A stretch of 54,791 bases of DNA. Origin: a virus. The notes beneath the pieces are model-generated. The model worked only from the letters and a program-made list of their open reading frames with translations. It did not search any database and was not told the DNA's origin. This document shows positions 22,374 to 47,494 of this stretch, in pieces. The position numbers and the translations under genes are program-made. Positions within the stretch are counted from its first letter, which is position 1; the number at the start of each line of letters is the position of its first letter. The stretch is from the IMG/VR virus record IMGVR_UViG_3300042446_001590, positions 1 through 54,791 of that record; one strand, 5' to 3'.

Positions 22374-22634
22374 ATGTTAGTTATAAAAAGATATACAGCT
22401 TCATGGTGTGGACCATGTCAAATGCTATCGCCAATAATGGCAGAATTACAAAACGAAAACAGTAATGTTAGCTTCATTACTGTAGACGTAGATCAAAATG
22501 CAGAAGAAGCCAAAATATCAAATGTGCGTGGAGTACCAACGGTTATGTTCCTAAAAAATGGACAAGAAGTACATCGTTTTTCAGGTGTACAACCAAAACA
22601 GGTTATCGCCAATTTGATCAAACAATATTCCTAA
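22374..22634 (+). CDS. Thioredoxin
   Basis: The 86-residue protein has the active site ASWCGPCQML with Cys12 and Cys15, followed by FITVDVDQNAEEAKISNVRG, the cis-Pro segment VRGVPTVMFLKNG, and a C-terminal helix. It lacks about 20 N-terminal residues relative to typical thioredoxins (~105) but keeps the active-site half and the beta-sheet end. It lies 21 bases before a class II ribonucleotide reductase that needs thioredoxin as reductant, so it most likely recycles the C-terminal disulfide of that enzyme. Confidence 0.93.
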   Translation: MLVIKRYTASWCGPCQMLSPIMAELQNENSNVSFITVDVDQNAEEAKISNVRGVPTVMFLKNGQEVHRFSGVQPKQVIANLIKQYS

Positions 22635-22655
22635 AAATTAAAAACTATTATTAAA

Positions 22656-24509
22656 ATGAACGTAGAACAAAGCATTTTGTCGGATATTACTACCTACCTT
22701 AAGTACGCGAAGTATAATCCAGAAAAACAAAGAAGAGAAGTATGGGGTGAATTAGTTGACAGAAATAAGTCAATGCATTTAAAGAAATTCCCTCAATTAA
22801 GTGAAGAAATAGAATGGGCCTATAAATTTGTTTATGACAAAAAAGTATTACCTTCTATGCGTTCAATGCAATTCGCTGGAAAGCCAATTGAAATTAACAA
22901 CACAAGAGTATTTAACTGCTCTTATTTACCAATCGATGATTTAGCATCATTTTCTGAAATTATGTTCTTATTACTTTCAGGATGTGGAGTAGGCTATTCA
23001 GTACAACAACATCATATTGAGAAATTACCTGAAGTTAGAAAACCATTAAAATCTAAAAGATATTTAGTTGGTGATTCAATTGAAGGATGGGCTGACGCAG
23101 TTAAAGTATTAATGAAAGCCTACCTAAGAGGAGGACCAGCGCCATTATTTGACTTTAGAGATATTCGTCCTAAAGGTGCATCATTGATTACTGTAGGTGG
23201 TAAAGCACCAGGTCCAGAGCCATTAAAAATTGCTTTAATCCACGTACAATCAATATTAGATAGAAAAACAGATGGAGAGAAATTAACATCAGTAGAATGT
23301 CACGATATTATTTGCCATTTAGCAGACGCTGTATTATCAGGCGGTATTAGAAGAGCAGCATTAATCGCTTTATTTAATTTAGATGATGAAAATATGTTGA
23401 CTTGTAAGTTTGGTAACTGGTGGGAAGAAAATCCTCAACGCGGTAGAGCAAACAATACAGCAGTATTAATTAATTCTAAAATTGAAAAAGATGTATTTTT
23501 AGGATTATGGAAGAAAATTGAATTAAGTAACAGTGGAGAACCAGGATTTATTTTCTCAAACGATAAAGACGCTGGTACTAACCCATGTGCTGAAATTAAC
23601 TTAAAGCCAAATCAATTCTGTAATTTATGTGAAGTAAATGCTTCAACAATTGAATCACAAGAAGATTTAAATGAAAGAGTTAAAGCAGCAGCGTTCATTG
23701 GAACATTACAAGCATCATATACTGATTTCCATTATTTAAGAGATGTTTGGAAAAAAACAACAGAAAAAGAAGCATTATTAGGTATCGGAATGACAGGTAT
23801 CGCTTCAGGAACTGTATTTAAATATAGTTTAAAAGAAGCAGCTAAAATAGCTGTTGAAGAAAATGCTAGAGTAGCAGATGTAATCAAAATCAATAAAGCA
23901 GCTCGTATCACTACAGTTAAACCATCAGGTACTACATCATTAGTATTAGGAACTTCAAGTGGTATCCACGCATGGCACGATGATTTCTATTTAAGAAGAA
24001 TTCGCTTAGGTAAAAACGAAGCATTATATACTTACTTAGCAATTAATCACCCAGAATTATTAGAAGATGATTTCTTCAAACCACATATTCAAGCGATTGT
24101 AACTATTCCTCAACGTGCACCAGAAGGCGCTATTACTCGTACTAAAGAAACAGCATTCGAATTATTAGAGCGTATTAAGAAATTCAATAAAGAATGGATT
24201 AAACCAGGACATAAGAAAGGATCTAACATGCATAACGTTTCAGCTACAGTAAATATCAAACAAGATGAGTGGGAACCAGTAGGAGAGTGGTTATGGGAAA
24301 ATAAACAGTATTTCACTGCATTATCATTCTTGCCTGAAGATTTAGGTACATATACTCAAGCACCATTCGAATCAATTGATGAGGCTACATTTAATGATAG
24401 AGTTCAACATTTACACTTATTAGATTTATCTAAAGTAGTAGAAATGGATGACATGACAGCATTAATGGATCAAGCAGCTTGTGCAGGTGGGGCATGCGAA
24501 GTAGTTTAG
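22656..24509 (+). CDS. Adenosylcobalamin-dependent (class II) ribonucleotide reductase
   Basis: The 617-residue protein fits the monomeric RTPR type of Lactobacillus leichmannii. Landmark residues occur with matching spacing: RVFNCSY (Cys88), 'NPCAEINLKPNQFC' (Cys311, Glu313, Cys322, eleven residues apart as for Cys408/Cys419 there), 'LSGGIRRAALI', 'KPSGTTSLVLGTSSGIH' and the C-terminal shuttle pair CAGGAC (Cys609, Cys614). It reduces ribonucleotides to deoxyribonucleotides, using B12 to make the thiyl radical and thioredoxin to reset the disulfide. Unlike class I, it needs no oxygen and no small subunit, and none is seen here. The B12 must come from the host. The family form is about 740 residues, so this one is compact. 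Confidence 0.9.
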   Translation: MNVEQSILSDITTYLKYAKYNPEKQRREVWGELVDRNKSMHLKKFPQLSEEIEWAYKFVYDKKVLPSMRSMQFAGKPIEINNTRVFNCSYLPIDDLASFSEIMFLLLSGCGVGYSVQQHHIEKLPEVRKPLKSKRYLVGDSIEGWADAVKVLMKAYLRGGPAPLFDFRDIRPKGASLITVGGKAPGPEPLKIALIHVQSILDRKTDGEKLTSVECHDIICHLADAVLSGGIRRAALIALFNLDDENMLTCKFGNWWEENPQRGRANNTAVLINSKIEKDVFLGLWKKIELSNSGEPGFIFSNDKDAGTNPCAEINLKPNQFCNLCEVNASTIESQEDLNERVKAAAFIGTLQASYTDFHYLRDVWKKTTEKEALLGIGMTGIASGTVFKYSLKEAAKIAVEENARVADVIKINKAARITTVKPSGTTSLVLGTSSGIHAWHDDFYLRRIRLGKNEALYTYLAINHPELLEDDFFKPHIQAIVTIPQRAPEGAITRTKETAFELLERIKKFNKEWIKPGHKKGSNMHNVSATVNIKQDEWEPVGEWLWENKQYFTALSFLPEDLGTYTQAPFESIDEATFNDRVQHLHLLDLSKVVEMDDMTALMDQAACAGGACEVV

Positions 24510-24847
24510 TAGAAAATATACATTACTATAAAGAAGGAGATAGGGTGGTTTTTACCACCCTTTTTCACATTCAACGTGGTCAATGTTGTGGGAATGGGTG
24601 TAGGAACTGTCCTTATATCCCAAAACACTTAAAAGGAAATTTGGAACTTAAAACAGAATTTATTAAATTTAAACATATGAATTTAGAAGAGTTAAATAAG
24701 ATGAAAAAAGAGGCTGAAGAGCTAAGTAATATGAAAGACCAAATGTCTGCCGTTGAACTACAAGCTAAAGCCTTAGAACTAACCAATAGATTAGAAGAAA
24801 TATTGGGTTCTATAATTAAGGTTCCTAAAGAAGAAGATAATGAGTAA
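24494..24847 (+). CDS. Small Cys-motif protein (DUF5522-like) with coiled-coil tail
   Basis: The N-terminal half matches the DUF5522 pattern: 'HYYKEGDRVVFTTLFHIQRGQCCGNGCRNCPY', with Cys in CC..GC..CPY. The second half is a charged coiled coil (MNLEELNKMKKEAEELSNMK, then LELTNRLEEIL). The start at 24494 overlaps the RNR stop by 16 bases; 24479 is also possible. A start at 24677 would remove the conserved domain. A terminator-like hairpin lies inside the coding sequence at 24543. The function is unknown; the Cys cluster suggests metal binding. The fused coiled coil is unusual to me. Confidence 0.72.
   Translation: MRSSLVENIHYYKEGDRVVFTTLFHIQRGQCCGNGCRNCPYIPKHLKGNLELKTEFIKFKHMNLEELNKMKKEAEELSNMKDQMSAVELQAKALELTNRLEEILGSIIKVPKEEDNE
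24543..24565 (+). terminator. Terminator-like hairpin inside the DUF5522-like gene
   Basis: A perfect 7-bp stem GGGTGGT / ACCACCC with a TTTT loop is followed by five Ts, 34 bases after the RNR stop. It lies within codons for the residues RVVFTTLF, so it may attenuate downstream genes. Confidence 0.7.
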
Positions 24848-25373
24848 AAAACGTTTATACGTTAGTTCTGAAGATGCTTGGATGTATATTCAAGCACCAA
24901 AAAACATGGGACATACTGCCACTCACTATACTAGAGTACCAAGCATTGATCCTAAATACCCAAGTGGAGACGGATGGGAAGATGTAATTTATCTTCATGA
25001 ACCAATACTAGACCCTTCAGGTGCTATCCGTAAACCAGAATGGATATATGTTTTAGTTAATGTATCTATGCATGGTATGGTTAAAGTAGGAATGACTACT
25101 AATACAGTAGAAGAACGTGCTAAAGAAATCAATGCTGCTACTGGCGTTCCTACACCTTGGATACCAGTATTTAAATTTAAATGTTATGGCTCTCGTTATT
25201 TAGAGAAAGAAGTTCATGATCATTTACATCAATATAGAGTAGCAAACAATAGAGAAATGTTCAGTACAGATGCTATGACAGCTCAAAAAGTAATAGAAAA
25301 ACTAGGCGTTAACTATGCTAATGCATTGTATGTAGCTACTGAATTAAAACAAGATTTGGAAAATCAAAATTAA
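24840..25373 (+). CDS. GIY-YIG-type nuclease domain protein (T5orf172/MUG113-like)
   Basis: Residues ~68-150 of this 177-residue protein match the T5orf172 branch of the GIY-YIG superfamily: 'WIYVLVNVSMHGMVKVGMTTNTVEERAKEI' is followed by 'YLEKEVHDHLHQYRVANNREMF'. The Gly-Met and Arg/Glu positions correspond to the usual catalytic layout. The N-terminal ~65 residues are a separate extension (VSSEDAWMYIQAPKNMGHTA). It overlaps the upstream gene by eight bases. The family contains DNA nucleases and proteins of unknown action; a role in host DNA breakdown or in homing is possible, but no intron or adjacent split gene is seen. Confidence 0.75.
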   Translation: MSKKRLYVSSEDAWMYIQAPKNMGHTATHYTRVPSIDPKYPSGDGWEDVIYLHEPILDPSGAIRKPEWIYVLVNVSMHGMVKVGMTTNTVEERAKEINAATGVPTPWIPVFKFKCYGSRYLEKEVHDHLHQYRVANNREMFSTDAMTAQKVIEKLGVNYANALYVATELKQDLENQN

Positions 25374-25386
25374 TATTTTATATTTA
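25355..25386 (+). promoter_or_regulatory. Host-like promoter before queD
   Basis: TTTG at 25355-25358, a 20-base spacer beginning GAAAATCAAAA, and TATATTTA at 25379-25386. The ATG follows seven bases later, so the mRNA leader would be only a few bases. It lies inside the 3' end of the GIY-YIG gene. Confidence 0.7.
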
Positions 25387-25393
25387 AAACAAT

Positions 25394-25873
25394 ATGGCAA
25401 GATACATCTCAACAAAAACATTCGACAACTATTCAGTTGCGATTAGACAATGGAAAGCACAGCATTCACACTGTCAATTATTACATGGTTATGGAATCTA
25501 CTTCAAAGTATGGTTCGCATCTAACCAACCAGATCTAGACAAGCAATTAGATGAAATGAATTGGATTGTTGACTTTGGAGGATTTAAAACTAAACCAGTA
25601 GGAAACGGATTAAAAGATTGGATGGACCATATGTGGGATCATACAGTATTAATTGAAAAAGATGATCCGTATGCTGATATATTTGTACAAATGGAACAAA
25701 TGGGATTAGCTAAAGTTCATTTAATGGATAAAATGGGCTGTGAGTCATTAGCTAAATTAGTATCAGATAAATTTAACGAAGTATTATCTAATACAGATGG
25801 TGCTAGATGTAAAGTAATTAAAGTAGAGTGTTTCGAACACGGTAAAAATTCATCAATATTTGAAGCAGAATAA
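25394..25873 (+). CDS. queD: 6-carboxytetrahydropterin synthase (QueD)
   Basis: The 159-residue protein has the QueD/PTPS metal and catalytic pattern: 'WKAQHSHCQLLHGYGIYFKVWF' (Cys catalytic, His zinc ligands), 'LDEMNWIVDFGGFK' and 'WMDHMWDHTVLIEKDDP', where the HTVL His is a conserved active-site residue. The C-terminus has VIKVECFEHGKNSSIF. It makes 6-carboxytetrahydropterin from the FolE product, step two of preQ0 synthesis. It heads the 7-deazaguanine cassette and has its own host-like promoter. Confidence 0.92.
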   Translation: MARYISTKTFDNYSVAIRQWKAQHSHCQLLHGYGIYFKVWFASNQPDLDKQLDEMNWIVDFGGFKTKPVGNGLKDWMDHMWDHTVLIEKDDPYADIFVQMEQMGLAKVHLMDKMGCESLAKLVSDKFNEVLSNTDGARCKVIKVECFEHGKNSSIFEAE

Positions 25874-25874
25874 T

Positions 25875-26672
25875 ATGAAAATTAGTCATGAAGTTCCTTT
25901 ATCATTATTAAAATCAAGTAGATTATTTAATGATTACGATTATTGTTTACCTCACTTATTAGATAAACATGAAGAATACAAAGAATATTTTTTAGAAGGA
26001 CAAACATTGCCTCAAAAGCGTTTTGTTATCATGGATAATGGTTTGTTTGAAGGTGTAACTCACACTGAAAAAGATTTAATTGAAAAAATTAATCTAATTA
26101 AACCAGATATCTTTATTGTTCCTGATGAATGGAATGACACAGCACTTACCCACAGAAATGCTAAGTATTGGATGAATGTAATTAAAGAACAACTACCTAA
26201 AGAAACTGAATTGATGGTAGTAATGCAAGGGCATACTTTAGGTGATTTTATGAATCTATACAACCAATGTGCTGCTTTAGGATATACACACTTTGCATTT
26301 AATCATTCATCTATATATTATCAACATGATGGATACCATCCAAATCTATTAGTAAATCAAATGATGAATAGAATTTATATAATTTCAAGACTATATAAAG
26401 AAAAAATCATTAAAGATAGCCATTATGTCCACTTATTAGGAGCATCATTACCACAAGAATTCATGTATTATAGAGAACCAGAATTTGCATTTATTAAATC
26501 TGTAGATACATCATCTCCAATTATAAATGGTATTTTAGAGATACCATATGAAGATTATGGTTTATTAACTAAACCTAAAAACAAAATTGAAGAATTTATG
26601 GAAGGTGATTGGTCAAAGCAAATTGGACATTTAACTCACAATATTCACAAATTTAAAAAATTTATAAAATAA
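25875..26672 (+). CDS. DpdA/tRNA-guanine transglycosylase-like protein
   Basis: The ATG at 25875, one base after the queD stop, gives 265 residues; an in-frame TTG at 25860 is less likely. Features match phage transglycosylase-like (DpdA-type) proteins: VIMDNGLFEG (Asp54), 'DIFIVPDEWNDT' (Asp84), 'ELMVVMQGHT' (Gln118-Gly119), 'VHLLGASLP', and 'FIKSVDTSSPIINGI' with Asp211 as candidate nucleophile. DpdA exchanges guanine in DNA for preQ0 or a derivative. Placement between queD and queC, with folE and queE nearby, supports this. It is shorter than most TGT/DpdA proteins and might act on RNA instead. Confidence 0.66.
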   Translation: MKISHEVPLSLLKSSRLFNDYDYCLPHLLDKHEEYKEYFLEGQTLPQKRFVIMDNGLFEGVTHTEKDLIEKINLIKPDIFIVPDEWNDTALTHRNAKYWMNVIKEQLPKETELMVVMQGHTLGDFMNLYNQCAALGYTHFAFNHSSIYYQHDGYHPNLLVNQMMNRIYIISRLYKEKIIKDSHYVHLLGASLPQEFMYYREPEFAFIKSVDTSSPIINGILEIPYEDYGLLTKPKNKIEEFMEGDWSKQIGHLTHNIHKFKKFIK

Positions 26673-26685
26673 ATTAAACAACAAC

Positions 26686-27078
26686 ATGGCACAAACACTC
26701 ACATCATGTACTACAACATTGGGACATTCAGGTACAACAACAGGAACAGCGTACTTTCAACCAAGTACAGGAACAATATCATCAGGTACATATATTAGTG
26801 GTGGTGATATTTCTAGTTTTACAGTACCAAATTTAACAACATCAAATTTAACAATTTCATCAATTAACCAAAACGCAATTATGCAAAACAAAGTAGCAGT
26901 GTTCAAAGTAACACGTAATGACAAAAACGAAATTACATCAACTGAATTCATTAAAGAAATGTGGATTCAAACTAAAAACAATCAATCAGTAGAATTTGAA
27001 GTAGCTAGAGATAAAGACTTAGCTAAGTATAAAGCTGAAGATTTATCTATTAGAACAATCTATACAGTAACATTCTAA
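26686..27078 (+). CDS. Hypothetical Thr/Ser-rich protein
   Basis: The 130-residue protein has two parts. Residues 1-65 are Thr/Ser/Gly-rich and repetitive (TTTGTAYFQPSTGTISSGTY), like a fibre or adhesin. Residues 66-130 are more globular and charged (VAVFKVTRNDKNEITSTEFI). There is no signal peptide or catalytic motif. It lies inside the 7-deazaguanine cassette but looks more like a structural protein. I do not recognise it. Confidence 0.65.
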   Translation: MAQTLTSCTTTLGHSGTTTGTAYFQPSTGTISSGTYISGGDISSFTVPNLTTSNLTISSINQNAIMQNKVAVFKVTRNDKNEITSTEFIKEMWIQTKNNQSVEFEVARDKDLAKYKAEDLSIRTIYTVTF

Positions 27079-27079
27079 A

Positions 27080-27742
27080 ATGAAAAAAATCGTATTCTGT
27101 TTACCTGGAAGAGAGTTTAGTGGTAGATTTCTATCATGTTGGACTGAGTTAGTATACGCTTGCTTATCGCAAGGTATTCAACCTATAATGTCTCAACAAT
27201 ACTCACCCTTACTATATTACGTTCGTAATATGTGCTTAGGAGGAGATAACTTAGCAGGTATCAAACAGGTACCATTCCAAGGTAAACTAGATTATGATTA
27301 TATAATGTGGATTGATTCAGACATTGTATTCACACCCGATCAATTCTTTAAGTTAATAGACAACGATAAAGATATTTCATCAGGTTTGTATATGATGGCT
27401 GACAATACCCATTATGCTACAGTTGAAAATTGGGATGATGAGTTCTTTCAAAAGAATGGACATATGCAATTCGTAAACAGAGAGATACTATCTAAGAAGA
27501 AAGATTTATTTAAAGCTGACTATACAGGATTTGGATGGATACTAATGAAGAAAGGCGTATTTGAATCTTTAGAATATCCTTGGTTTCAACCAATGTGGAC
27601 TGAATATGAAACAGATGGAAAGATTATTAGAGATTTCTCAATGGAAGACGTAGCCTTCTGTAGAATGATTAAAGAAAAAGGCTTTGATGTCTGGATTGAT
27701 CCTACAATAGTGGTAGGGCACGAAAAAATGGTTATATTATAA
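27080..27742 (+). CDS. GT-A type glycosyltransferase in the 7-deazaguanine cassette
   Basis: The 220-residue protein starts one base after the previous stop. It has a GT-A/GT2-like fold signature: an N-terminal beta strand KKIVFCLPG, a metal-binding D.D in 'YDYIMWIDSDIVFTPDQFF', 'TGFGWILMKKGVFE' and 'SMEDVAFCRMIKEKGFDVWID'. By family it moves a sugar from a nucleotide-sugar donor. Its place between the DpdA-like gene and queC, apart from the main glycan cluster, suggests it could modify the base or a related product. A protein or surface-glycan target is equally possible. Confidence 0.8.
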   Translation: MKKIVFCLPGREFSGRFLSCWTELVYACLSQGIQPIMSQQYSPLLYYVRNMCLGGDNLAGIKQVPFQGKLDYDYIMWIDSDIVFTPDQFFKLIDNDKDISSGLYMMADNTHYATVENWDDEFFQKNGHMQFVNREILSKKKDLFKADYTGFGWILMKKGVFESLEYPWFQPMWTEYETDGKIIRDFSMEDVAFCRMIKEKGFDVWIDPTIVVGHEKMVIL

Positions 27743-27751
27743 AAAAAACAA

Positions 27752-27934
27752 ATGGCAAAATTACAAAAAATTGAAACTACTCATTACATTTATGAGTACG
27801 AATTAAGTGAAGATGAATTAGCACTATATATTAGTGATCCTGATACATTTTGGGAAGATTTTAGCGATGAATGGAATGATCCATATATGGATGTAGATTC
27901 AACTCAACCAGAAATTAACTTTTTAGAAGAATAA
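27752..27934 (+). CDS. Small acidic hypothetical protein
   Basis: The 60-residue protein is strongly acidic, with Asp/Glu clusters (SEDELALYISDPDTFWEDFS, then DEWNDPYMDVDSTQPEINFL) and several aromatics. No basic or Cys cluster is present. It lies nine bases after the glycosyltransferase and six before queC. It could be a DNA-mimic or interaction peptide, but this rests only on its acidity. Confidence 0.55.
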   Translation: MAKLQKIETTHYIYEYELSEDELALYISDPDTFWEDFSDEWNDPYMDVDSTQPEINFLEE

Positions 27935-27939
27935 ATAAA

Positions 27940-28758
27940 ATGAAAAAACAAGCAGTATTATCACTAAGCGGAGGAATGGATAGCTCTAGCTTACTGCTTC
28001 ATCTACTCGCCAATGGCTATGAAGTAACATCATTATCCTTTGACTATGGTCAAAAACACAATGTCGAATTAGAACGAGCTAAAGATTTAGTTAGCTATTT
28101 AAATTCACAATGTACAGAAAATAACTGTTATGGTGGATGTGAAGTTAAACATCAAGTAATTACTTTAGATGGTTTATCTCAATTATTAAATTCATCATTA
28201 GTATCTGGTGGTTCAGAAGTACCTGAAGGTCATTATGCTGAAGAAAATATGAAAGCAACTGTAGTGCCTAATCGTAATAAAATATTTAGTTCAATTATTC
28301 AAGCAGTTGCATTATCAGTTGCTGAACAAAAGAATACTGAATGTGTAATTGCTATGGGTATACACGCAGGTGACCATGCTATATATCCTGACTGTAGACA
28401 AGAGTTTCGTGATATCGATTATGAAGCGTTTAAAGCTGGTAATTGGGGTGCTGAGAAAGTAACATATTATACTCCGTATTTAGAAGGTGATAAATACACT
28501 ATATTAGAGGATGGCGCTAAGTGTTGCAAAATACTAGGCCTTGATTTTAACGCAGTATATAGCCGAACTAATACGTCTTATAAGCCATACCCGTCAGGCA
28601 ACTCAGATTATAAATCAGCATCATCAGTTGAACGTGTTGAAGCATTTATTAAATTAGGTCGCCCAGATCCAGTTCAATATGAAGACGAGACAGGTCTAGT
28701 GACATGGGAACACGTAGTAAATGAAGTAACTAAAGTATTAGAAAGTCATGAAAAATAG
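27940..28758 (+). CDS. queC: 7-cyano-7-deazaguanine synthase (QueC), zinc cysteines missing
   Basis: The 272-residue protein has the PP-loop LSLSGGMDSSSLLLHL (SGGMDS at 9-14), 'SFDYGQKHNVELERA', 'VVPNRNKIF', 'IHAGDHAIYPDCRQEF' and 'GRPDPVQYE', all typical of QueC, which turns 7-carboxy-7-deazaguanine into preQ0 using ATP and ammonia. The C-terminal zinc site normally reads C..........CG.C..C.ER.EAF. Here it reads TSYKPYPSGNSDYKSASSVERVEAF, so all four Cys positions are replaced. Zinc may be absent or bound by other residues, for example the cluster CTENNCYGGC near residue 52. Its place in the cassette is clear. Confidence 0.9.
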   Translation: MKKQAVLSLSGGMDSSSLLLHLLANGYEVTSLSFDYGQKHNVELERAKDLVSYLNSQCTENNCYGGCEVKHQVITLDGLSQLLNSSLVSGGSEVPEGHYAEENMKATVVPNRNKIFSSIIQAVALSVAEQKNTECVIAMGIHAGDHAIYPDCRQEFRDIDYEAFKAGNWGAEKVTYYTPYLEGDKYTILEDGAKCCKILGLDFNAVYSRTNTSYKPYPSGNSDYKSASSVERVEAFIKLGRPDPVQYEDETGLVTWEHVVNEVTKVLESHEK

Positions 28759-28966
28759 AAAACAACATAAAATGAATGTGGGAAAAGAATCACATAAGGA
28801 AATTGACTTTAATAAACTTCCTGATCCTAAATTACACCAACGTGTTAGTTTCTTTAAATCAGGAATTAGAATAGCAGGTTATATTACTTTACCTTTTAAC
28901 TTAGCTATAGGAGCTATTATACTTGTATTAAGTGAGTTAATTGGTATTATAGAAGAGTTAGTATAA
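28748..28966 (+). CDS. Small membrane protein
   Basis: This starts 11 bases before the end of queC; an alternative ATG is at 28778. The basic N-terminus is followed by amphipathic residues and a hydrophobic segment near the C-terminus (GYITLPFNLAIGAIILVLSE), predicted to span the membrane once. The protein ends in IGIIEELV. The function is unknown; it may be an inner-membrane superinfection or lysis accessory. Confidence 0.55.
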   Translation: MKNRKQHKMNVGKESHKEIDFNKLPDPKLHQRVSFFKSGIRIAGYITLPFNLAIGAIILVLSELIGIIEELV

Positions 28967-28970
28967 TAAA

Positions 28971-29002
28971 TTTGGAAAGGCAAAAATAGTTTATTAAATT
29001 CA
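28971..29002 (+). promoter_or_regulatory. Host-like promoter for the small HTH gene
   Basis: TTTG at 28971-28974, a 20-base spacer beginning GAAAGGCAAAA, and TAAATTCA at 28995-29002. A 24-base leader precedes the ATG. With the terminator at 29244 it defines a short single-gene transcript. Confidence 0.6.
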
Positions 29003-29026
29003 AACAACAAATAAAATAAAAAAGTT

Positions 29027-29233
29027 ATGAAATTAAATCGCACAGCAAAACAAGCATTCTACAGTGCTAGAAGAAGAGATGGTGATTCTGCTAGATTAGC
29101 AGAGATGAGTGGATACTCAACCTCTCACGTTACTAACGTTTTAAATGGTCACCGTAATGTTACGGATACCTTAGCAAACGCAATGTATAACATTTCTAGA
29201 CGTAGATTGAAAAACAGCCAAGTAGCTGCTTAA
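29027..29233 (+). CDS. Small helix-turn-helix DNA-binding protein
   Basis: The 68-residue protein is basic and has a helix-turn-helix of XRE/LacI-like form: 'DSARLAEMSGYSTSHVTNVLNGHRNVTD', where the SGYSTSHVTNVLNG segment is the recognition helix. The C-terminus is RRRLKNSQVAA. It lies alone between a host-like promoter and a strong terminator, the classic arrangement for a regulator. It likely controls transcription of phage or host genes. Confidence 0.75.
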   Translation: MKLNRTAKQAFYSARRRDGDSARLAEMSGYSTSHVTNVLNGHRNVTDTLANAMYNISRRRLKNSQVAA

Positions 29234-29243
29234 GCAAAAACCC

Positions 29244-29274
29244 AATACCCTCTATTTTACATAGGGGGTATTTT
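29244..29274 (+). terminator. Rho-independent terminator after the HTH gene
   Basis: A 12-bp stem AATACCCTCTAT / ATAGGGGGTATT with one wobble and a TTTAC loop is followed by TTCTATTT. It closes the single-gene unit before queE. Confidence 0.88.
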
Positions 29275-29299
29275 CTATTTAAACAACAAACAATAAAAT

Positions 29300-30070
29300 A
29301 TGGAGCGCATATCTGATTACAATAAAAAAATTCAAGTAATTGAAATTTATCCTTGTGTACAAAGCGAAGGCAGTAGACAAGGAAGACCTACAGTAGCTAT
29401 TAGAACAACAGGCTGTACTCACAGATGTTGGTTTGGTGAAGGTGGATGGTGTGATTCTTGGTACACAAGTATTCATCCTGAAAAAGGTAAATTTACATTT
29501 AATGACATCGTTAAAATGTATGATGAAAATCCTCACATTAAAGAAATGATGTTAACAGGTGGTGCACCTACAATGCATCCAGTATTAGTAAACGAATTAA
29601 CACATTTTGCAAATGAAAGAGGTATTCTCATCACTATGGAAACTGAAGGTAGTCACTTTGTTGAGACTGATTTTCCTATCGGTCTCTTATCTATTAGTCC
29701 TAAGTTTAGCAATAGCGTTCCTAGGGTTGGGATTCTTACTCCACTTGGGAAAGAAGTGGATCAAAAGTTTGTGGACCAACATAACAAATACCGTCTTAAC
29801 ATTCCTGAAATTAAAAAAATGATCGAATTTCATTCTGATTATCATTTAAAACCAGTATGGGATGGTACAGAAGAAAACTTAGCTGAAATTGAAGCATTTA
29901 GAGTTGAATTAGGTATCCCTAAAAACAAAACATGGATTATGCCCGCTGGTGATACAGCAGAAGAATTAACTAGAATGTATCCAATTTCAATTGAAATGTG
30001 TACTAGAGAAGGTTATAACTGGACTGGTAGAGATCATATTATAGCTTACGGACAAAAGAGAGGAGTGTAG
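29300..30070 (+). CDS. queE: 7-carboxy-7-deazaguanine synthase (QueE), unusual radical-SAM motif
   Basis: The 256-residue protein has QueE features: 'IYPCVQSEGSRQGRPTVAIR', a Cys cluster GCTHRCWFGEGGWCDSWYT, 'MMLTGGAPTMHP', and a late 'YHLKPVWDGTEEN' and 'TWIMPAGDT'. The Cys spacing is CX3CX7C instead of CX3CX2C, with an insertion before the Trp-Cys, and the SAM-binding GGEP is GGAP. All three Cys are present, so a [4Fe-4S] cluster is still likely. It makes 7-carboxy-7-deazaguanine in step three of preQ0 synthesis. It follows a terminator, so the start of its transcript is unclear; no clear promoter box is seen in the 25-base gap. Confidence 0.9.
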   Translation: MERISDYNKKIQVIEIYPCVQSEGSRQGRPTVAIRTTGCTHRCWFGEGGWCDSWYTSIHPEKGKFTFNDIVKMYDENPHIKEMMLTGGAPTMHPVLVNELTHFANERGILITMETEGSHFVETDFPIGLLSISPKFSNSVPRVGILTPLGKEVDQKFVDQHNKYRLNIPEIKKMIEFHSDYHLKPVWDGTEENLAEIEAFRVELGIPKNKTWIMPAGDTAEELTRMYPISIEMCTREGYNWTGRDHIIAYGQKRGV

Positions 30071-30072
30071 TT

Positions 30073-30582
30073 ATGAGAATACTATTTGGAACATCAGCAT
30101 TAGATACTGCTGTAAAAAAAATAGCCAAACATATTACAGAACAAAAACACCCATCACCACCAGTAATGATCTGTGTTTTAAATGGAGCATTTATGTTCTT
30201 TACTGATTTAGTTAAGGAAATAAAAATGGATTGTGAAATCGATTTTATTAGAGTTAAATCATATGAGGGTAGAGAACAGTATGATATTAAAATACTTAAA
30301 GATATTGAATCAAATATTGATGGTAAAAATATCTACATTATAGATGATATTCTAGATTCAGGCAATACAATGAAGGCGCTTATTAAGCATTTATCTCATA
30401 GACACAAACCACGTTCAATCACACCTATTGTATTGTTTAAACGCTATGATAATGAATGGCCTGTAGCGCATGGTATTGAATTAAAAGATGAAACATGGAT
30501 CCATGGTTATGGATTAGACAATGAAAAAGGTTTAGGAAGAAATCTTCCTTATATACTTGGAGATTTAACAGAAGTTGAGTAA
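30073..30582 (+). CDS. Hypoxanthine/guanine phosphoribosyltransferase
   Basis: The 169-residue protein has the purine PRTase layout: 'MICVLNGAFMFFTDLVKEI', then 'IDFIRVKSYEG', and the PRPP-binding loop NIYIIDDILDSGNTMKALI with the two conserved Asp and SGNT. 'WIHGYGLDNEKGLGRNLPYI' matches the C-terminal base-binding part. It converts hypoxanthine or guanine with PRPP to IMP or GMP. It starts two bases after queE and precedes folE by nine bases, so it may feed GTP into preQ0 synthesis or salvage guanine released by base exchange. Confidence 0.9.
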   Translation: MRILFGTSALDTAVKKIAKHITEQKHPSPPVMICVLNGAFMFFTDLVKEIKMDCEIDFIRVKSYEGREQYDIKILKDIESNIDGKNIYIIDDILDSGNTMKALIKHLSHRHKPRSITPIVLFKRYDNEWPVAHGIELKDETWIHGYGLDNEKGLGRNLPYILGDLTEVE

Positions 30583-30591
30583 ATTTAAATT

Positions 30592-31314
30592 ATGGAAAAT
30601 AAAAGACGTAAAACAGCTGATATTGAAAAATTAGAGACAGCACAAGCAGGTTTTGCAAATGGTATTTCATTGCAATTAAAAGACCTAATTAATAAAGGAC
30701 AACATCGTTCTTTAAATGACAAAGAAAAGAAAAAAATTATTACTAACGCTGAAAAAGCATATGGTAAATTTTTAACTGCATTAGGTGTAGATTGGGAAAA
30801 TGACCCAAACAGTATGGAAACACCTCGTCGTGTATCTAAGGCATATGTAAATGACTTATGGAGAGGTAGATATGAAATACCAACTGAAATTACAGCATTC
30901 CCTAGTGATGGATACAATGGTATTGTTTTAGAACGAGACATTCCAGTAACAAGTATGTGTTCTCATCATCACCAAGCTATCTTAGGTAATGTTCATATTG
31001 CTTATATTCCTGGAGTTGATGGTAAAGTAATTGGTTTAAGTAAATTAAATCGTATTGTAGAACACTTTGGACGTAGAGGTGCAATTCAAGAACAATTAAC
31101 AGTAGCTATTCACAATGCAATTAATGAAATTTGTGAAGGTAATATTGGAGTGATGGTTGTAGTTCATGCAGGTCACCAATGTGTATCTTGCAGAGGCGTT
31201 AAACATCAAGGCGCTAGTATGGTTACTAGTGAAGTATCAGGTGTGTTTGCTGACCACACAAGAACAGCTAAAATTGAAGTATTAGAAATGTTAAAATTAA
31301 AAATATGTTGCTAA
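30592..31314 (+). CDS. folE: GTP cyclohydrolase I (FolE)
   Basis: The C-terminal two thirds of this 240-residue protein match FolE: 'DPNSMETPRRVSKAYVNDLW', 'VTSMCSHHHQAILGNVHIAY' (zinc Cys and His), 'VIGLSKLNRIVEHFGRRGAIQEQL' and 'GHQCVSCRGVKHQGASMVTS'. The first ~60 residues are a basic extension. It opens the GTP ring to dihydroneopterin triphosphate, step one toward preQ0 (and folate). It is the last step-enzyme in the cassette and overlaps the dUTPase-like gene by 10 bases. Confidence 0.93.
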   Translation: MENKRRKTADIEKLETAQAGFANGISLQLKDLINKGQHRSLNDKEKKKIITNAEKAYGKFLTALGVDWENDPNSMETPRRVSKAYVNDLWRGRYEIPTEITAFPSDGYNGIVLERDIPVTSMCSHHHQAILGNVHIAYIPGVDGKVIGLSKLNRIVEHFGRRGAIQEQLTVAIHNAINEICEGNIGVMVVVHAGHQCVSCRGVKHQGASMVTSEVSGVFADHTRTAKIEVLEMLKLKICC

Positions 31315-31802
31315 CAGGACATCAAGTATTCCAGTATATGGAAATGAATGGTACGAATTACCATAAAGTAAATCAAGTAGGTATTGATTTATCAGTTAAA
31401 AAAATCGAAAAAATAATTGGTGGAGTTATGGTGTTTCAAGAAAAAACCGTAGTTAACCCTGAATTATTTACTAATGTTGAACTTACAAACATTGAAGGTA
31501 GAAAAATGTGGCGCTTAGAAAGTGGTACTTATGCACTAACATTTAATGAAGGTGTTAAGATTCCAGCTAACGCTACTGGTTTTATTACATCGCGTTCTTC
31601 AATCTATAGAGGCGGTGCAAAAATTAATTCCCCAATTTGGGACCCAGGATTTGAAACTAGAGAAATGGGTACTACAATGTTTTTAAACGCAGAAACTATA
31701 TTCATCGAAGAAAATGCTCGCGTTTGTCAATTTTACATGATTACCAATCCAATTCCACAAGAATTGTACAACGGTCAATTCCAAGGTAAGACAAATTACT
31801 AG
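31305..31802 (+). CDS. dUTPase / dCTP deaminase-like protein
   Basis: The 165-residue protein shows the trimeric dUTPase/Dcd pattern: 'QVGIDLSVKKI' near the N-terminus, 'GVKIPANATGFITSRSSIYRGG', 'NSPIWDPGFETREMG' and 'IFIEENARVCQFYMI'. It removes or prevents dUTP; whether it hydrolyses dUTP or deaminates dCTP cannot be settled here. The ATG overlaps the folE 3' end by 10 bases. A strong terminator follows, closing the cassette. Confidence 0.85.
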   Translation: MLLTGHQVFQYMEMNGTNYHKVNQVGIDLSVKKIEKIIGGVMVFQEKTVVNPELFTNVELTNIEGRKMWRLESGTYALTFNEGVKIPANATGFITSRSSIYRGGAKINSPIWDPGFETREMGTTMFLNAETIFIEENARVCQFYMITNPIPQELYNGQFQGKTNY

Positions 31803-32971: not shown

Positions 32972-35900
32972 ATGGCATTAGTAAAAAGATTAGTAAAAGG
33001 TTCACCATTAACATTCGCAGAAGGGGATGATAACTTAGTTTATTTAGAGGGATTAGCATTAAATGCTGCTACTACAGGCTCAAATTTATTCTATGGTAAC
33101 CAAATAATTTCAGGATCAGGAATAAATACTATATTACAAATACATGGAGCCAATGCTGAACCTTGGGCTTTTGGAATATATAATGATACTTATAATCCTA
33201 CTCAATCAGTATTAGCGGGTTGGGTAGATATTACTGGTGAAGCAAATATAGGAACAGAGGTTAATAAACCACTTCAAATCTATACAAATGCCAATTACGC
33301 AAACCCTACCTTAATAATATCAAGCTCAGGTGTTACCATTACTAATAAATTAACTGTAAACAGTGGTATTACAGGTTCATTACAAGGAACATCATCATAC
33401 GCTATAAATGCTTTAAGTGCTTCATATGCTACAACAGCATCATACGCAAACAATTTTACAGTAGCTGGCACTTTAACTGCTCAAACACTTATAGTACAAA
33501 CTATAACATCCAGTATAATTTACACTTCTGGGTCTAACCAGTTAGGTGATGCTATAAACGACACTCAATTATTAATAGGTACTACTAGGATAACAGGTAG
33601 TTTACAAGTAACTGGTAGCAGTAGTCTATCAGGATCATTAAATGTATCTAATGGTATTACTGGGTCATTATTTGGAACATCATCGTATGCTTCAAATGCT
33701 TTAACAGCATCATTTGCCTTAAACGCAGTATCAATATCTACAGGATCATTTGCAACTACAGGTTCAAATAATTTTATAGGAAACCAAACTATAACAGGAT
33801 CATTAAGAGTAAGTGGTAGTATTACCGGTTCATTACTAGGAACAGCGTCACTAGCTACAACAGCATCATATATAAGAAATGCCGTATCTGCTTCATACTG
33901 GAGTGGAAGTATTACAAATGCTATTTCAGCATCATACGCCGCAACAGCATCTTTAGCTACAACAGCATCCTACATAAGAACAGCAGCTTCTGCTTCATAT
34001 GTAAATCAATTAGTACAAAAAGTATCTATTAGTGGATCACTACAAAATGGTAATTCTACATTAGCATCAGGAGTATCATCACACGCTGAGGGATCAGACA
34101 CAACAGCATCGGGTGATTATTCACATGCTGAGGGTAATTATACTCTAACAATTGGGTTATGGTCACACGTTGAAGGATTTTATACTACAGCATCGGGTGA
34201 TTACTCTCATGCTGAAGGATTTGGGGCATTAGCTTCAGGATCATATTCACATGCTGAAGGAAATTACACAATATCATCAGGATCATATTCACACGCTGAA
34301 GGAAATACTACTACAGCATTAGGAGACTATTCACACGCTGAAGGTTACAGTACAGAAGCAATAGGAAACCATTCTCACGCTGAAGGAAACAACAATACAA
34401 CTTTAGGAGTATCATCACACGCTGAAGGATCAAACACTGTAACATCAGGATCATATTCACATGCTGAGGGTAATTATACTCTAACAACTGGACGATGGTC
34501 ACATGCTGAGGGTAGCTATGCTACAGCATTAGGAGATTGGTCACATGCTGAAGGATTTGGGGCATTAGCTTCTGGGTCAAATTCACATGCTGAAGGAAAT
34601 TATACTATAGCCTCAGGATCAAACTCACACGCTGAAGGAGACAATACAATAGCATTAGGAGATTCATCTCACGCTGAAGGATACAGTACTAGAGCAACAG
34701 GAAATTATTCTCACGCTGAAGGAAACAATAATACAGCTTTAGGAGACTATTCACACGCTGAAGGATCAAGCACTACAGCTTTAGGAGATTATTCACACGC
34801 TGAAGGATCAAGCACTACAGCTTCTGGGTCACATTCACACGCTGAAGGATTAGGCACTAGAGCATCAGGGTCATATTCACATGCTGAAGGGCAGAGTACT
34901 AGAGCAGTAGGAAATGCATCACACGCTGAAGGATCAAGTGCAATAGCATCAGGAAGTCATTCACATGCTGAAGGACAAGGTGCTATATCTTTAGGACAAT
35001 ATTCACACGCTGAAGGAACTACTACTAGAGCAGTAGGAAATGCATCACACGCTGAAGGAAATTCTACTATGGCTTTAGGGTCAAATTCACATGCTGAAGG
35101 TTATTTTACTACAGCGTCACTAAATTATTCTCATGCTGAAGGAATTCAATCTGTATCATCAGGATCATATTCACATGCTGAAGGAGAAAGTACTATAACT
35201 TTAGGAAATGCATCACACGCTGAAGGAGCTTTTACTACAGCATCCGGAGATTACTCTCATGCTGAAGGATTAAGCTCAACAGCATCCGGTTCAAATTCAC
35301 ATGCTGAGGGTGAATTTACTCTAGCATCAGGAAGTACATCACACTCTGAAGGTTATTATACAACAGCATCAGGTGATTATTCACATGCTGAAGGAGCTAA
35401 TGCTATAGCATCTGGATTATATTCACATGCTGAAGGAAACAATACTAGAGCAACAGGATCACATTCACATGCTGAGGGATCAAATACTAGGGCATCAGGA
35501 ATAGGATCACATGCTGAAGGAGCAAACACAATAGCATCAGGAGATTATTCTCATGCTAGTGGTCAATTTACTATAGCATCTGGATCATACCAAACAGTAT
35601 TAGGTAGATACAATTTAGTAAATACTGCATCTTTATTTATTATAGGTAAAGGAACCAGTTCAGGAGCTAGATCAAATATAATGGATGTTACATCTACTAC
35701 TGTAAGTATTACAGGATCACTAAATGTGAATGGTAGCATTACAGGTTCACTATTAGGAACAGCATCATTGGCTACAACAGCTTCATATTCTTTAAGATCA
35801 AAAGTAAATTATGCACAAGCCGGAGGTGGTGCTCTTATTACTTTAGGTGCTAGTGCATCCCCACAATCAATTATAAGTGCTTCAATAACTACTACAGGTA

Positions 35901-36172
35901 ATCCTGTTAGAGTTGCAGCATATGGTGATGCTGAAAATACAGGTGCTGGTTATTGGGCACAATTACAACTTTATAGAGATGCAACAGCAATAGGTGCCAC
36001 AGTACATACTGAAGGTAGTGCTACCAGTGAAAATTCACCATTTGCTTTCTCTTATATAGATGCACCAGCAGCAGGAACATATACTTATTATTTAACAGCA
36101 AACCAAATCTCTGGAGGGAATATTAAATTTGGAGAAAGCACAGCACCAATAATAAATGTTCAAGAATTATAA
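32972..36172 (+). CDS. Large tail fibre with 36 SHAEG (Hep/Hag, YadA-head-like) repeats
   Basis: The 1066-residue protein has four parts. Residues 1-60 are the attachment motif shared with the first fibre gene. Residues ~130-345 contain 'GSL.GTAS.ATTASYA' repeats of a trimeric shaft. Residues 369-872 are 36 copies of a 14-residue unit (SHAEG..T.ASG.Y), as in trimeric autotransporter head domains that form a left-handed beta-roll. Residues ~873-1066 are a C-terminal globular domain with a predicted beta-sandwich (VRVAAYGDAENTGAGYWAQL). Each repeat has the SHAEG core with only minor changes (SHVEG, SHSEG, SHASG). It is likely a long, stiff, trimeric receptor-binding fibre. No S74 chaperone domain was seen. 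Confidence 0.88.
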   Translation: MALVKRLVKGSPLTFAEGDDNLVYLEGLALNAATTGSNLFYGNQIISGSGINTILQIHGANAEPWAFGIYNDTYNPTQSVLAGWVDITGEANIGTEVNKPLQIYTNANYANPTLIISSSGVTITNKLTVNSGITGSLQGTSSYAINALSASYATTASYANNFTVAGTLTAQTLIVQTITSSIIYTSGSNQLGDAINDTQLLIGTTRITGSLQVTGSSSLSGSLNVSNGITGSLFGTSSYASNALTASFALNAVSISTGSFATTGSNNFIGNQTITGSLRVSGSITGSLLGTASLATTASYIRNAVSASYWSGSITNAISASYAATASLATTASYIRTAASASYVNQLVQKVSISGSLQNGNSTLASGVSSHAEGSDTTASGDYSHAEGNYTLTIGLWSHVEGFYTTASGDYSHAEGFGALASGSYSHAEGNYTISSGSYSHAEGNTTTALGDYSHAEGYSTEAIGNHSHAEGNNNTTLGVSSHAEGSNTVTSGSYSHAEGNYTLTTGRWSHAEGSYATALGDWSHAEGFGALASGSNSHAEGNYTIASGSNSHAEGDNTIALGDSSHAEGYSTRATGNYSHAEGNNNTALGDYSHAEGSSTTALGDYSHAEGSSTTASGSHSHAEGLGTRASGSYSHAEGQSTRAVGNASHAEGSSAIASGSHSHAEGQGAISLGQYSHAEGTTTRAVGNASHAEGNSTMALGSNSHAEGYFTTASLNYSHAEGIQSVSSGSYSHAEGESTITLGNASHAEGAFTTASGDYSHAEGLSSTASGSNSHAEGEFTLASGSTSHSEGYYTTASGDYSHAEGANAIASGLYSHAEGNNTRATGSHSHAEGSNTRASGIGSHAEGANTIASGDYSHASGQFTIASGSYQTVLGRYNLVNTASLFIIGKGTSSGARSNIMDVTSTTVSITGSLNVNGSITGSLLGTASLATTASYSLRSKVNYAQAGGGALITLGASASPQSIISASITTTGNPVRVAAYGDAENTGAGYWAQLQLYRDATAIGATVHTEGSATSENSPFAFSYIDAPAAGTYTYYLTANQISGGNIKFGESTAPIINVQEL
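34076..35587 (+). repeat. 36 x 42-bp tandem repeat array (SHAEG units)
   Basis: The array covers exactly 36 units of 42 bp with no change in phase. Each unit encodes x-SHAEG-(nine variable residues). It is an in-frame coding repeat, not a CRISPR array. Confidence 0.93.
34118..34789 (+). repeat. 336-bp higher-order duplication inside the SHAEG array
   Basis: Units 2-9 (34118-34453) and 10-17 (34454-34789) match one by one: NYTLT, [FS]Y.TA, FGALASG, NYTI.SG, N/D-TALGD, YST.A.GN, NNNT.LG and S.T. This suggests an 8-unit block was duplicated within the array. Confidence 0.8.
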
Positions 36173-46034: not shown

Positions 46035-47492
46035 ATGAAAACAGGTTATATTAAAAAAGATCAACGTAAGAAGATCTTATTGTTATGTGATGATATCCGA
46101 ATGCATTCAGGTATCTCAACAATGGCACGTGAAATAGTATTAGGTACTGCTCACAAATACAATTGGGTCAATATTGGTGGAGCAATTAACCATCCAGATC
46201 AAGGTAAACGCTTTGATTTAACTGCTGATGTTAATAAAGAAGTAGGCATTGATGATTCTAGTGTTACGATATATCCTATGAGTGGATATGGAGATCAAGT
46301 TTCTGTTACCCAAATTATGGAAATAGAAAAACCAGACGCTATAATGATGTTTACTGACCCAAGATATTGGGTTTGGTTATTTAACATGGAACATGAAATC
46401 CGTACTAAAATACCAATGGTATATTTGAACATCTGGGATGACTTACCTTATCCAATGTATAATAAATCATTCTATGAATCATGCGATACATTATTAGCTA
46501 TCAGTAAACAAACTGAAAATATTAATAAGGTAGTATTAGGTGATTTAGCTAATGATAAGGTTATTAAATATGTTCCTCATGGAATTAATGAGAAATATTT
46601 TTTCCCTATTACCCAAGACAAACCAGAATATCTATCATTACAAGAACTAAAAAAACAAGTATATGGCGATAAAGAGTATGATTTTACTCTATTATATAAC
46701 GCTAGAAATATCCGTCGTAAATCAGTTCCTGATTTGATGTTAGCATGGAAAATGTTTGTCGATGAATTACCTGAAGATAAGGCTAGTAAAACAGCATTTG
46801 TTTTACATACCCAACCTATTGATGAAAATGGTACTGATTTGTTCGCTGTTAAAGATATGTTATTTGGAAATGAGAAAAAATATAACATTATATTCTCATC
46901 TGCTAAATTAGCAACACCTCAGTTAAACCTATTATATAATACAGCGGATGCTGTAGCATTAGTTAGTTCTAATGAAGGATGGGGATTATCATTAACTGAA
47001 GCTATGATGTGTGGTAAGCCTATTATCGCTACAGTAACAGGAGGAATGCAAGATCAAATGCGTTTTGAAGATGAAAATGGAGAATGGATTAAATTTACTG
47101 AAGAATTTGGTTCAAACCATAAAGGTAAATATAAAAAACATGGTAAATGGGCATATCCTGTATTCCCAAGCAATACTTCACTCATCGGATCAGTTCCAAC
47201 ACCATACATTTATGATGATAGAGCACAACCAGAAGATATCGCTAAAGCAATTAATGATGTTTACAACACAAAACTAGAATCCCCAGAAACATATGCTGAA
47301 CAAAGTAAAGCAGCTCATGAATGGGTAACTTCAGAAGAATCTATGATGTCTGCAAAACATATGGCTGATAATTTCATAGAAGGAATGGAAGAAACATTTG
47401 AAAAATGGATCCCAAGAAAACCATTTGAATTAATTAAAGTAAAACAATTACCACAACCAAAACATTACGTAAAACATTCAATCGCAAAATAG
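46035..47492 (+). CDS. GT-B glycosyltransferase (family 4-like)
   Basis: The 485-residue protein has GT-B features: an N-terminal 'KILLLCDDIRMHSGISTMAREIV', a mid-region acceptor domain, 'YNARNIRRKSVPDLMLAWKMF', and the C-terminal donor motif 'SNEGWGLSLTEAMMCGKPIIATVTGG' with the E...(G)E layout of GT4 enzymes. It transfers a sugar from a nucleotide sugar. Two bases separate it from a second GT-B gene, so they may act in sequence on one glycan. Confidence 0.9.
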   Translation: MKTGYIKKDQRKKILLLCDDIRMHSGISTMAREIVLGTAHKYNWVNIGGAINHPDQGKRFDLTADVNKEVGIDDSSVTIYPMSGYGDQVSVTQIMEIEKPDAIMMFTDPRYWVWLFNMEHEIRTKIPMVYLNIWDDLPYPMYNKSFYESCDTLLAISKQTENINKVVLGDLANDKVIKYVPHGINEKYFFPITQDKPEYLSLQELKKQVYGDKEYDFTLLYNARNIRRKSVPDLMLAWKMFVDELPEDKASKTAFVLHTQPIDENGTDLFAVKDMLFGNEKKYNIIFSSAKLATPQLNLLYNTADAVALVSSNEGWGLSLTEAMMCGKPIIATVTGGMQDQMRFEDENGEWIKFTEEFGSNHKGKYKKHGKWAYPVFPSNTSLIGSVPTPYIYDDRAQPEDIAKAINDVYNTKLESPETYAEQSKAAHEWVTSEESMMSAKHMADNFIEGMEETFEKWIPRKPFELIKVKQLPQPKHYVKHSIAK

Positions 47493-47494
47493 TT

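What the first reader, a model, noticed from the sequence alone, without database searches (positions are those of the whole stretch)
24840..31802. Complete preQ0 pathway with a DpdA-like transglycosylase: probable 7-deazaguanine modification of phage DNA
Seen: folE, queD, queE and queC homologues, covering every step from GTP to preQ0, lie in one 7-kb stretch with a TGT/DpdA-like protein (25875-26672) and a purine phosphoribosyltransferase. Known: several phages replace guanine in DNA with 7-deazaguanines through DpdA to resist restriction. No queF, tgt-type tRNA enzyme set or queA/queG is seen, which favours a DNA end product such as dPreQ0 over tRNA queuosine. Inference: this phage hypermodifies its DNA.
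Basis: partly seen in the sequence, partly recalled or inferred. Interest (0 to 1): 0.72.

Follow-up and report, generated by a model that had tools for sequence, protein, structure and literature searches.

The report
Phage guanine-replacement operon with guanine salvage
This fragment of a large Bacteroidota-type phage carries every gene needed to make 7-deazaguanine and a compact enzyme that probably swaps it for guanine in the phage's DNA, next to a guanine-recycling enzyme that may feed the displaced guanine back into the pathway.

Summary
QueD, QueC, QueE, FolE and a purine phosphoribosyltransferase (PRT) lie at 25394-31314; 24840-25373 is a GIY-YIG-type gene and 31305-31802 a dUTPase/DCD. 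The 265-aa protein has no Pfam match. Its AlphaFold model (pLDDT 92.8) matches the DNA preQ0 insertase DpdA (7ui4, Z 17.5) and TGT, with the expected Asp motifs invariant. Its relatives are DpdA of Flavobacterium phage immuto and a 'hypothetical protein' of Firehammervirus CP220, in which 100% of dG is replaced by dADG. It fits the DpdA3 subfamily (named from memory; that paper is not held). The end product (dPreQ0, dADG or other) is not settled: 'no queF' in a 55-kb fragment means little, although 155-173 kb relatives also lack it.

New here: the PRT (HGPRT) abuts folE. Many relatives have a different, Gpt-like PRT in the slot beside folE, and Queuovirinae phages with a preQ0 operon and DpdA have a Gpt-like domain fused to FolE. 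I infer that PRT recycles guanine released by DpdA via GMP and GTP back to FolE. The PRT is absent from several relatives and CP220, so it is an accessory. No chemistry was measured.

The parts
25394..25873 (+). queD homologue (6-carboxytetrahydropterin synthase), 159 aa
   Evidence: PF01242 8.7e-10, PHROG 2389 QueD-like 1.7e-32
25875..26672 (+). DpdA3-type DNA guanine transglycosylase, 265 aa; ATG one base after the queD stop
   Evidence: No Pfam/NCBIfam match; PHROG 19058 1.8e-32; 33-36% identical to immuto DpdA and a CP220 protein; AF2 pLDDT 92.8; DpdA 7ui4 Z 17.5
26686..27078 (+). 130-aa protein, unknown; homologues near dpdA/queC in 27 loci
27080..27742 (+). glycosyltransferase-like protein, present only in the closest relatives and one other locus; probably not part of the pathway
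   Evidence: PHROG 1574 1.8e-65; 4 of 79 loci
27940..28758 (+). queC homologue lacking the zinc tetracysteine motif; SGGxDS, YxQxHxxE, VPxRN and YPDC motifs kept
   Evidence: PF06508 7e-38; motif check
29300..30070 (+). queE homologue (radical SAM 7-carboxy-7-deazaguanine synthase)
   Evidence: PHROG 2076 1.1e-44; 84% DNA identity over 316 bp to immuto queE
30073..30582 (+). hypoxanthine-guanine phosphoribosyltransferase, 169 aa; 2 nt after queE and 9 nt before folE
   Evidence: PDB 4qri HGXPRT 2.4e-25; TIGR01203 8e-35, below its curated cut-off
30592..31314 (+). folE (GTP cyclohydrolase I)
   Evidence: PF01227 2.7e-45
31305..31802 (+). dUTPase/dCTP deaminase-like; follows folE in many relatives; nucleotide metabolism, not preQ0 synthesis
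   Evidence: PF22769 1.2e-11; NF002598 1.9e-27; DCD in 12 loci

Best explanation
The operon makes a 7-deazaguanine base from GTP (FolE, QueD, QueE, QueC), and a compact DpdA3-type transglycosylase exchanges it for guanine in already replicated phage DNA, probably at most or all guanines as reported for CP220. Shown here: gene content, fold, motif conservation, conserved neighbourhood. Inferred: activity on DNA, extent of replacement, and end product (dPreQ0 or dADG most likely). Each exchange releases one free guanine. The HGPRT encoded between queE and folE probably converts it (with PRPP) to GMP, which kinases raise to GTP, the substrate of the adjacent FolE. This would drain the exchange product and close a guanine-to-preQ0 loop (inferred, about 0.45; supported by conserved adjacency, replacement by a second PRT subfamily, and PRT-FolE fusions). 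The confidence below is for the DNA-modification core, not for the salvage step.
For: Pathway genes. Transglycosylase. Hits of this family and of QueC in the phage collection occur in the same host groups (Campylobacter 14/15, Bacillus 5/5, Flavobacterium 4/4 records). CP220 DNA is 100% dADG for dG (PMC8306585), and CP220 encodes this family. PRT: in 10 of 14 FolE-bearing records a PRT lies within about 300 bp of FolE (matched stretches), against roughly 1-4% expected per record for random placement; two PRT subfamilies, HGPRT in the window and Gpt-like in the others. Brevundimonas phage MaInes has folE followed by an annotated xanthine PRT. A Gpt-like domain is fused to the N-terminus of FolE in Stenotrophomonas Bhz54, Variovorax VPv64, VpKK5, NP1 and MMDA13; profile-profile 98.9%, E 2e-17; Gpt structures E 3e-5.
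Against: No modified nucleoside is measured for this phage. Profile-profile comparison of the 265-aa family with DpdA1 was not significant, so homology to proven DpdA rests on structure and motifs. The PRT is not found next to folE in several relatives (L054, L060, L066-L071), in CP220 or in the annotation of CAjan, so it is not required for modification, and CP220 reaches 100% replacement without one. Pfam does not recognise the fused domain, and the small PRTs lack a stretch between the two motifs that MaInes has, so some may bind rather than convert purines.
Confidence: 0.8

Rival explanations
1. The pathway raises queuosine in host tRNA rather than modifying phage DNA; the 265-aa protein acts on tRNA.
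For: TGT fold; preQ0 is also the queuosine precursor.
Against: No TGT-family (PF01702) or QueA match above cut-off in relatives up to 173 kb. The family is viral only in these searches: none confirmed in 84,980 bacterial/archaeal genomes or in plasmids. CP220, a carrier, has 100% dADG DNA. The protein is much shorter than TGT (265 aa).
Confidence: 0.06
2. The PRT makes a 7-deazaguanine nucleotide that is polymerised into DNA, with no base exchange.
For: PRT next to folE; 100% replacement in CP220 could suggest a modified dNTP, as proposed before a DpdA was recognised there (PMC6884629).
Against: CP220 has no PRT match but has the transglycosylase. HGPRT catalysis uses N7 of the purine (established knowledge), which 7-deazaguanines lack. 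The fusion partner is FolE, whose substrate is GTP, not the late enzyme QueC.
Confidence: 0.07
3. The PRT is ordinary nucleotide salvage that sits in the operon by chance or for general dNTP supply.
For: Phage operons are dense; the PRT is absent beside folE in many relatives and other nucleotide genes (dUTPase, RNR, thioredoxin) lie nearby.
Against: Adjacency to FolE in 10 of 14 records with two different PRT subfamilies and both gene orders, MaInes, and fusion to FolE in unrelated preQ0-operon phages.
Confidence: 0.3
4. The Gpt-like domain is a purine/PRPP sensor that regulates FolE rather than a catalyst.
For: Shortened PRT domain in fusions and in the 133-aa forms; Pfam misses the fused domain; PRT-fold regulators such as PyrR exist (established knowledge).
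Against: PRPP loop (VIDDICDTG / FIDDIIDSG) and PWE motif conserved; the window version is a normal-length HGPRT.
Confidence: 0.2

Closest known systems
DpdA3 subfamily of phage DNA guanine transglycosylases (Cui et al. 2023, from memory; not held): Flavobacterium phage immuto and Firehammervirus CP220
   Same: 33-36% identity over the full length, same motifs, preQ0 genes in the same genomes
   Different: immuto also has QueF and a formyltransferase near dpdA, neither found here; the window PRT is HGPRT, immuto's is Gpt-like; CP220 has no PRT match
Escherichia phage CAjan / Queuovirinae preQ0-DpdA1 operons
   Same: folE-queD-queE-queC plus transglycosylase; dpdA proved essential for modification (PMC6884629)
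   Different: DpdA1 is longer and not significantly related by sequence profile; CAjan has no annotated PRT, other Queuovirinae have it fused to FolE
tRNA-guanine transglycosylase (TGT)
   Same: Fold (Z about 17) and Asp motifs
   Different: About 230 of 265 residues aligned to a 350-375 residue enzyme; no Pfam TGT match
HGPRT (Hpt) and XGPRT (Gpt)
   Same: Window PRT matches HGPRT structures 2e-25; relatives' PRT matches purine PRT/Gpt 1e-22
   Different: Encoded in a phage preQ0 operon, or fused to FolE

Membership tests
DpdA / DNA guanine transglycosylase | TGT/DpdA fold | tested here: met
   pLDDT 92.8; 7ui4 Z 17.5, rmsd 3.2, 229 aligned
DpdA / DNA guanine transglycosylase | Conserved Asp motifs of the base-exchange site | tested here: met
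   D54, D84, Q118-G119 and D211 invariant in 29 relatives, immuto and CP220; equivalence to TGT residues assigned by motif, not by an inspected superposition
DpdA / DNA guanine transglycosylase | Encoded with preQ0 genes in viruses, not as a cellular TGT | tested here: met
   QueC in 64 of 79 loci; none confirmed in bacterial/archaeal genomes or plasmids
DpdA / DNA guanine transglycosylase | Sequence-profile relation to proven DpdA1 | tested here: inconclusive
   hhalign aligned only the H..G / VD-S/T-S motifs, not significant
DpdA / DNA guanine transglycosylase | Exchange of guanine for 7-deazaguanine in DNA | not testable with these tools
   Needs biochemistry or LC-MS
DpdA3 subfamily | Homology to the Campylobacter/immuto members | tested here: met
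   E 4e-31 and 2e-31; the subfamily name, its membership and its complete-replacement property are from memory
preQ0 pathway | FolE, QueD, QueE and QueC present | tested here: met
   all four below their NCBIfam curated cut-offs
canonical QueC | SGGxDS, YxQxHxxE, VPxRN, YPDC motifs | tested here: met
   motif list from PMC13329287
canonical QueC | C(x)8CxxCxxC zinc motif | tested here: not met
   No CxxCxxC near the C-terminus in 63 QueC ORFs of the group; 50 have SDYKSA
HGPRT | PRPP motif and full-length similarity to HGPRT structures | tested here: met
   TIGR01203 120 bits, below its 150-bit cut-off
tRNA queuosine pathway | QueA or TGT present | tested here: not met
   fragments, so absence is limited evidence

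The most novel reading that the evidence does not exclude
7-deazaguanine phages run a closed guanine loop: DpdA frees guanine from DNA, a phage PRT (HGPRT, Gpt-like, or a Gpt-like domain fused to FolE) turns it into GMP, and FolE reuses the resulting GTP to make more preQ0, pulling base exchange towards completion.
Probability: 0.45. Interest if true: 0.62.

Novelty: new member of a known kind. Interest (0 to 1): 0.45.

Why it matters
It extends the compact DpdA3-type transglycosylase to a large set of uncultivated phages and gives the 'hypothetical protein' of Campylobacter Firehammerviruses a structural basis as their guanine-exchange enzyme. If the PRT link is real, it explains how a phage can replace most guanines without exhausting GTP or being slowed by released guanine, and gives a simple genetic test.

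Tried and rejected
Glycosyltransferase 27080-27742 as a tailoring enzyme: found in only 4 of 79 loci. PRT as a universal part of the system: rejected, absent beside folE in several relatives and from CP220. Bacillus BSP7 gene between queE and folE as a PRT: its translation shows no PRT motif. Zinc-less QueC as a marker of dADG: rejected, CP220 (dADG) keeps the cysteines while Bhz54 and MMDA13 lack them. QueF hits in the window and in most of the other records that rang were FolE itself. Literature: Cui et al. 2023 and Crippen et al. 2019 are not held; searches for DpdA3, and for PRT-FolE links, found nothing relevant. First alignment attempt failed on a stop codon in L009. hhalign of this family against DpdA1 not significant. 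Relatives in cellular genomes or plasmids: none confirmed.
Full report
1. Observation. The window is a 54,791-base linear virus record. On the + strand, QueD (25394-25873), a 265-aa protein (25875-26672), QueC (27940-28758), QueE (29300-30070), a purine PRT (30073-30582) and FolE (30592-31314) are confirmed. QueE and PRT are 2 nt apart, PRT and FolE 9 nt, and FolE overlaps DCD by 10 nt; close packing is general in this phage and is not evidence by itself.

2. The transglycosylase. The 265-aa protein has no Pfam or NCBIfam match and matches PHROG 19058 of unknown function. tblastn finds 23 phage records: Flavobacterium phage immuto (33%, annotated DNA guanine transglycosylase DpdA), 14 Campylobacter records (34-36%, mostly 'hypothetical protein') and weakly five Bacillus phages. 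QueC hits in the same collection cover the same groups: Campylobacter 15, Bacillus 5, Flavobacterium 4. Bacillus BSP7 has queC, queD, queE, folE and this protein together. An alignment of 29 sequences keeps D54-N55, D84, Q118-G119, H186, G189 and D211, as do immuto and CP220. AlphaFold2 gives pLDDT 92.8, pTM 0.91. Foldseek's best PDB matches are TGT (E 2e-8) with DpdA 7ui4 at 4e-7; VIA-align lists DpdA 7ui4 first, Z 17.5, 229 residues, 3.2 A, tied with TGT at about 17. Profile-profile comparison with DpdA1 was not significant, so the link to proven DpdA rests on fold and motifs. No relative was confirmed in 84,980 cellular genomes or in plasmids.

3. What it modifies. PMC8306585 reports 100% replacement of dG by dADG in CP220 and CPt10; PMC6884629 placed these phages among those without a recognised DpdA. 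From memory, Cui et al. 2023 later named DpdA3 for complete replacement; that paper is not held. TGT and QueA are not found above cut-off in the window or in relatives up to 173 kb, which fits DNA rather than tRNA. QueF above cut-off and a formyltransferase occur only in immuto among 18 records. The end product here is therefore probably dPreQ0 or dADG, but this is inference.

4. The PRT. The window's PRT matches HGPRT structures (4qri, 2.4e-25). In most FolE-bearing long relatives a PRT also abuts FolE, but it is a different, Gpt-like protein of about 133 aa. Ten of 14 FolE-bearing records have a PRT whose matched stretch lies within about 300 bp of FolE; random placement would give roughly 1-4% per record. 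Two of the ten (G000, G001) are near-identical, so they count once as lineages, and the others are related to one another. The adjacency is patchy: L054, L060 and L066-L071 have no PRT detected beside folE, and CP220 has none at all. Independently, Brevundimonas phage MaInes has folE followed by xanthine PRT, and a Gpt-like domain is fused to the N-terminus of FolE in Stenotrophomonas Bhz54 and Variovorax VPv64 and in Vibrio VpKK5 and 1.207.B, Pseudomonas NP1 and Sphingomonas MMDA13, each in an operon that runs queE, queC, queD, FolE and then a transglycosylase-type or equivalent gene. Pfam misses this domain, but its profile matches the Gpt-like PRTs (98.9%, E 2e-17) and Gpt structures (E 3e-5). 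33 phage records carry at least 80% of the fusion.

5. Mechanism. Base exchange releases one guanine per modified site. A guanine PRT beside, or fused to, FolE would convert it to GMP, on the way to GTP, FolE's substrate. I consider this the best reading of the PRT association (about 0.45) against plain salvage (0.3) and a sensor domain (0.2); these options overlap. A PRT acting on 7-deazaguanine is unlikely, because HGPRT chemistry uses N7 (established knowledge).

6. QueC variant. The window QueC and its relatives keep the SGGxDS, YxQxHxxE, VPxRN and (mostly) YPDC motifs but lack the zinc tetracysteine motif; none of 63 group QueC ORFs has CxxCxxC near the C-terminus, and 50 have SDYKSA instead. 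PMC13329287 lists the cysteine motif as canonical. CP220, CAjan and VpKK5 keep the cysteines, while Bhz54 and MMDA13 lack them. Whether the variant makes preQ0 or stops at ADG is not known.

7. Verdict. The system is a new member of a known kind. The PRT-FolE coupling was not found in the literature searched, which covers only openly licensed papers, so it may already be described elsewhere.

Noticed in passing
27940-28758 and 63 QueC ORFs in related loci: QueC lacks the zinc tetracysteine motif but keeps the other canonical motifs; most of the group has a conserved SDYKSA stretch followed by SVER in its place.
   Followed up: partly
29300-30070; L062:7918-8787: QueE cluster-loop cysteines are unusually spaced (C-x3-C-x7-C in the window; a long insertion before the third Cys in another subgroup).
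   Followed up: no
L079:15819-16361; L078:16478-17002: An AAA_28-type protein annotated as thymidylate kinase lies next to dpdA in CP220 and a few genes downstream in immuto.
   Followed up: partly
L009:8001-8783: dpdA relative has an in-frame stop after residue 183; sequencing error or a broken gene.
   Followed up: no
24840-25373: GIY-YIG/T5orf172 protein immediately upstream of queD, present only in the closest relatives; matches PADLOC PDC-S57 models (4e-23).
   Followed up: no
L112:11989-12417 (Cellulophaga phage phiST): Gpt-like PRT in a phage with no QueC match in its whole record and no annotated FolE nearby.
   Followed up: partly
32972-36172: 1066-aa protein with many SHAEG-type repeats, probably a fibre or adhesin.
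   Followed up: no
22374-24509: Thioredoxin-like gene followed by an adenosylcobalamin-type ribonucleotide reductase.
   Followed up: partly
46035-48790: Two adjacent glycosyltransferase-like proteins matching the same PHROG (2170).
   Followed up: no
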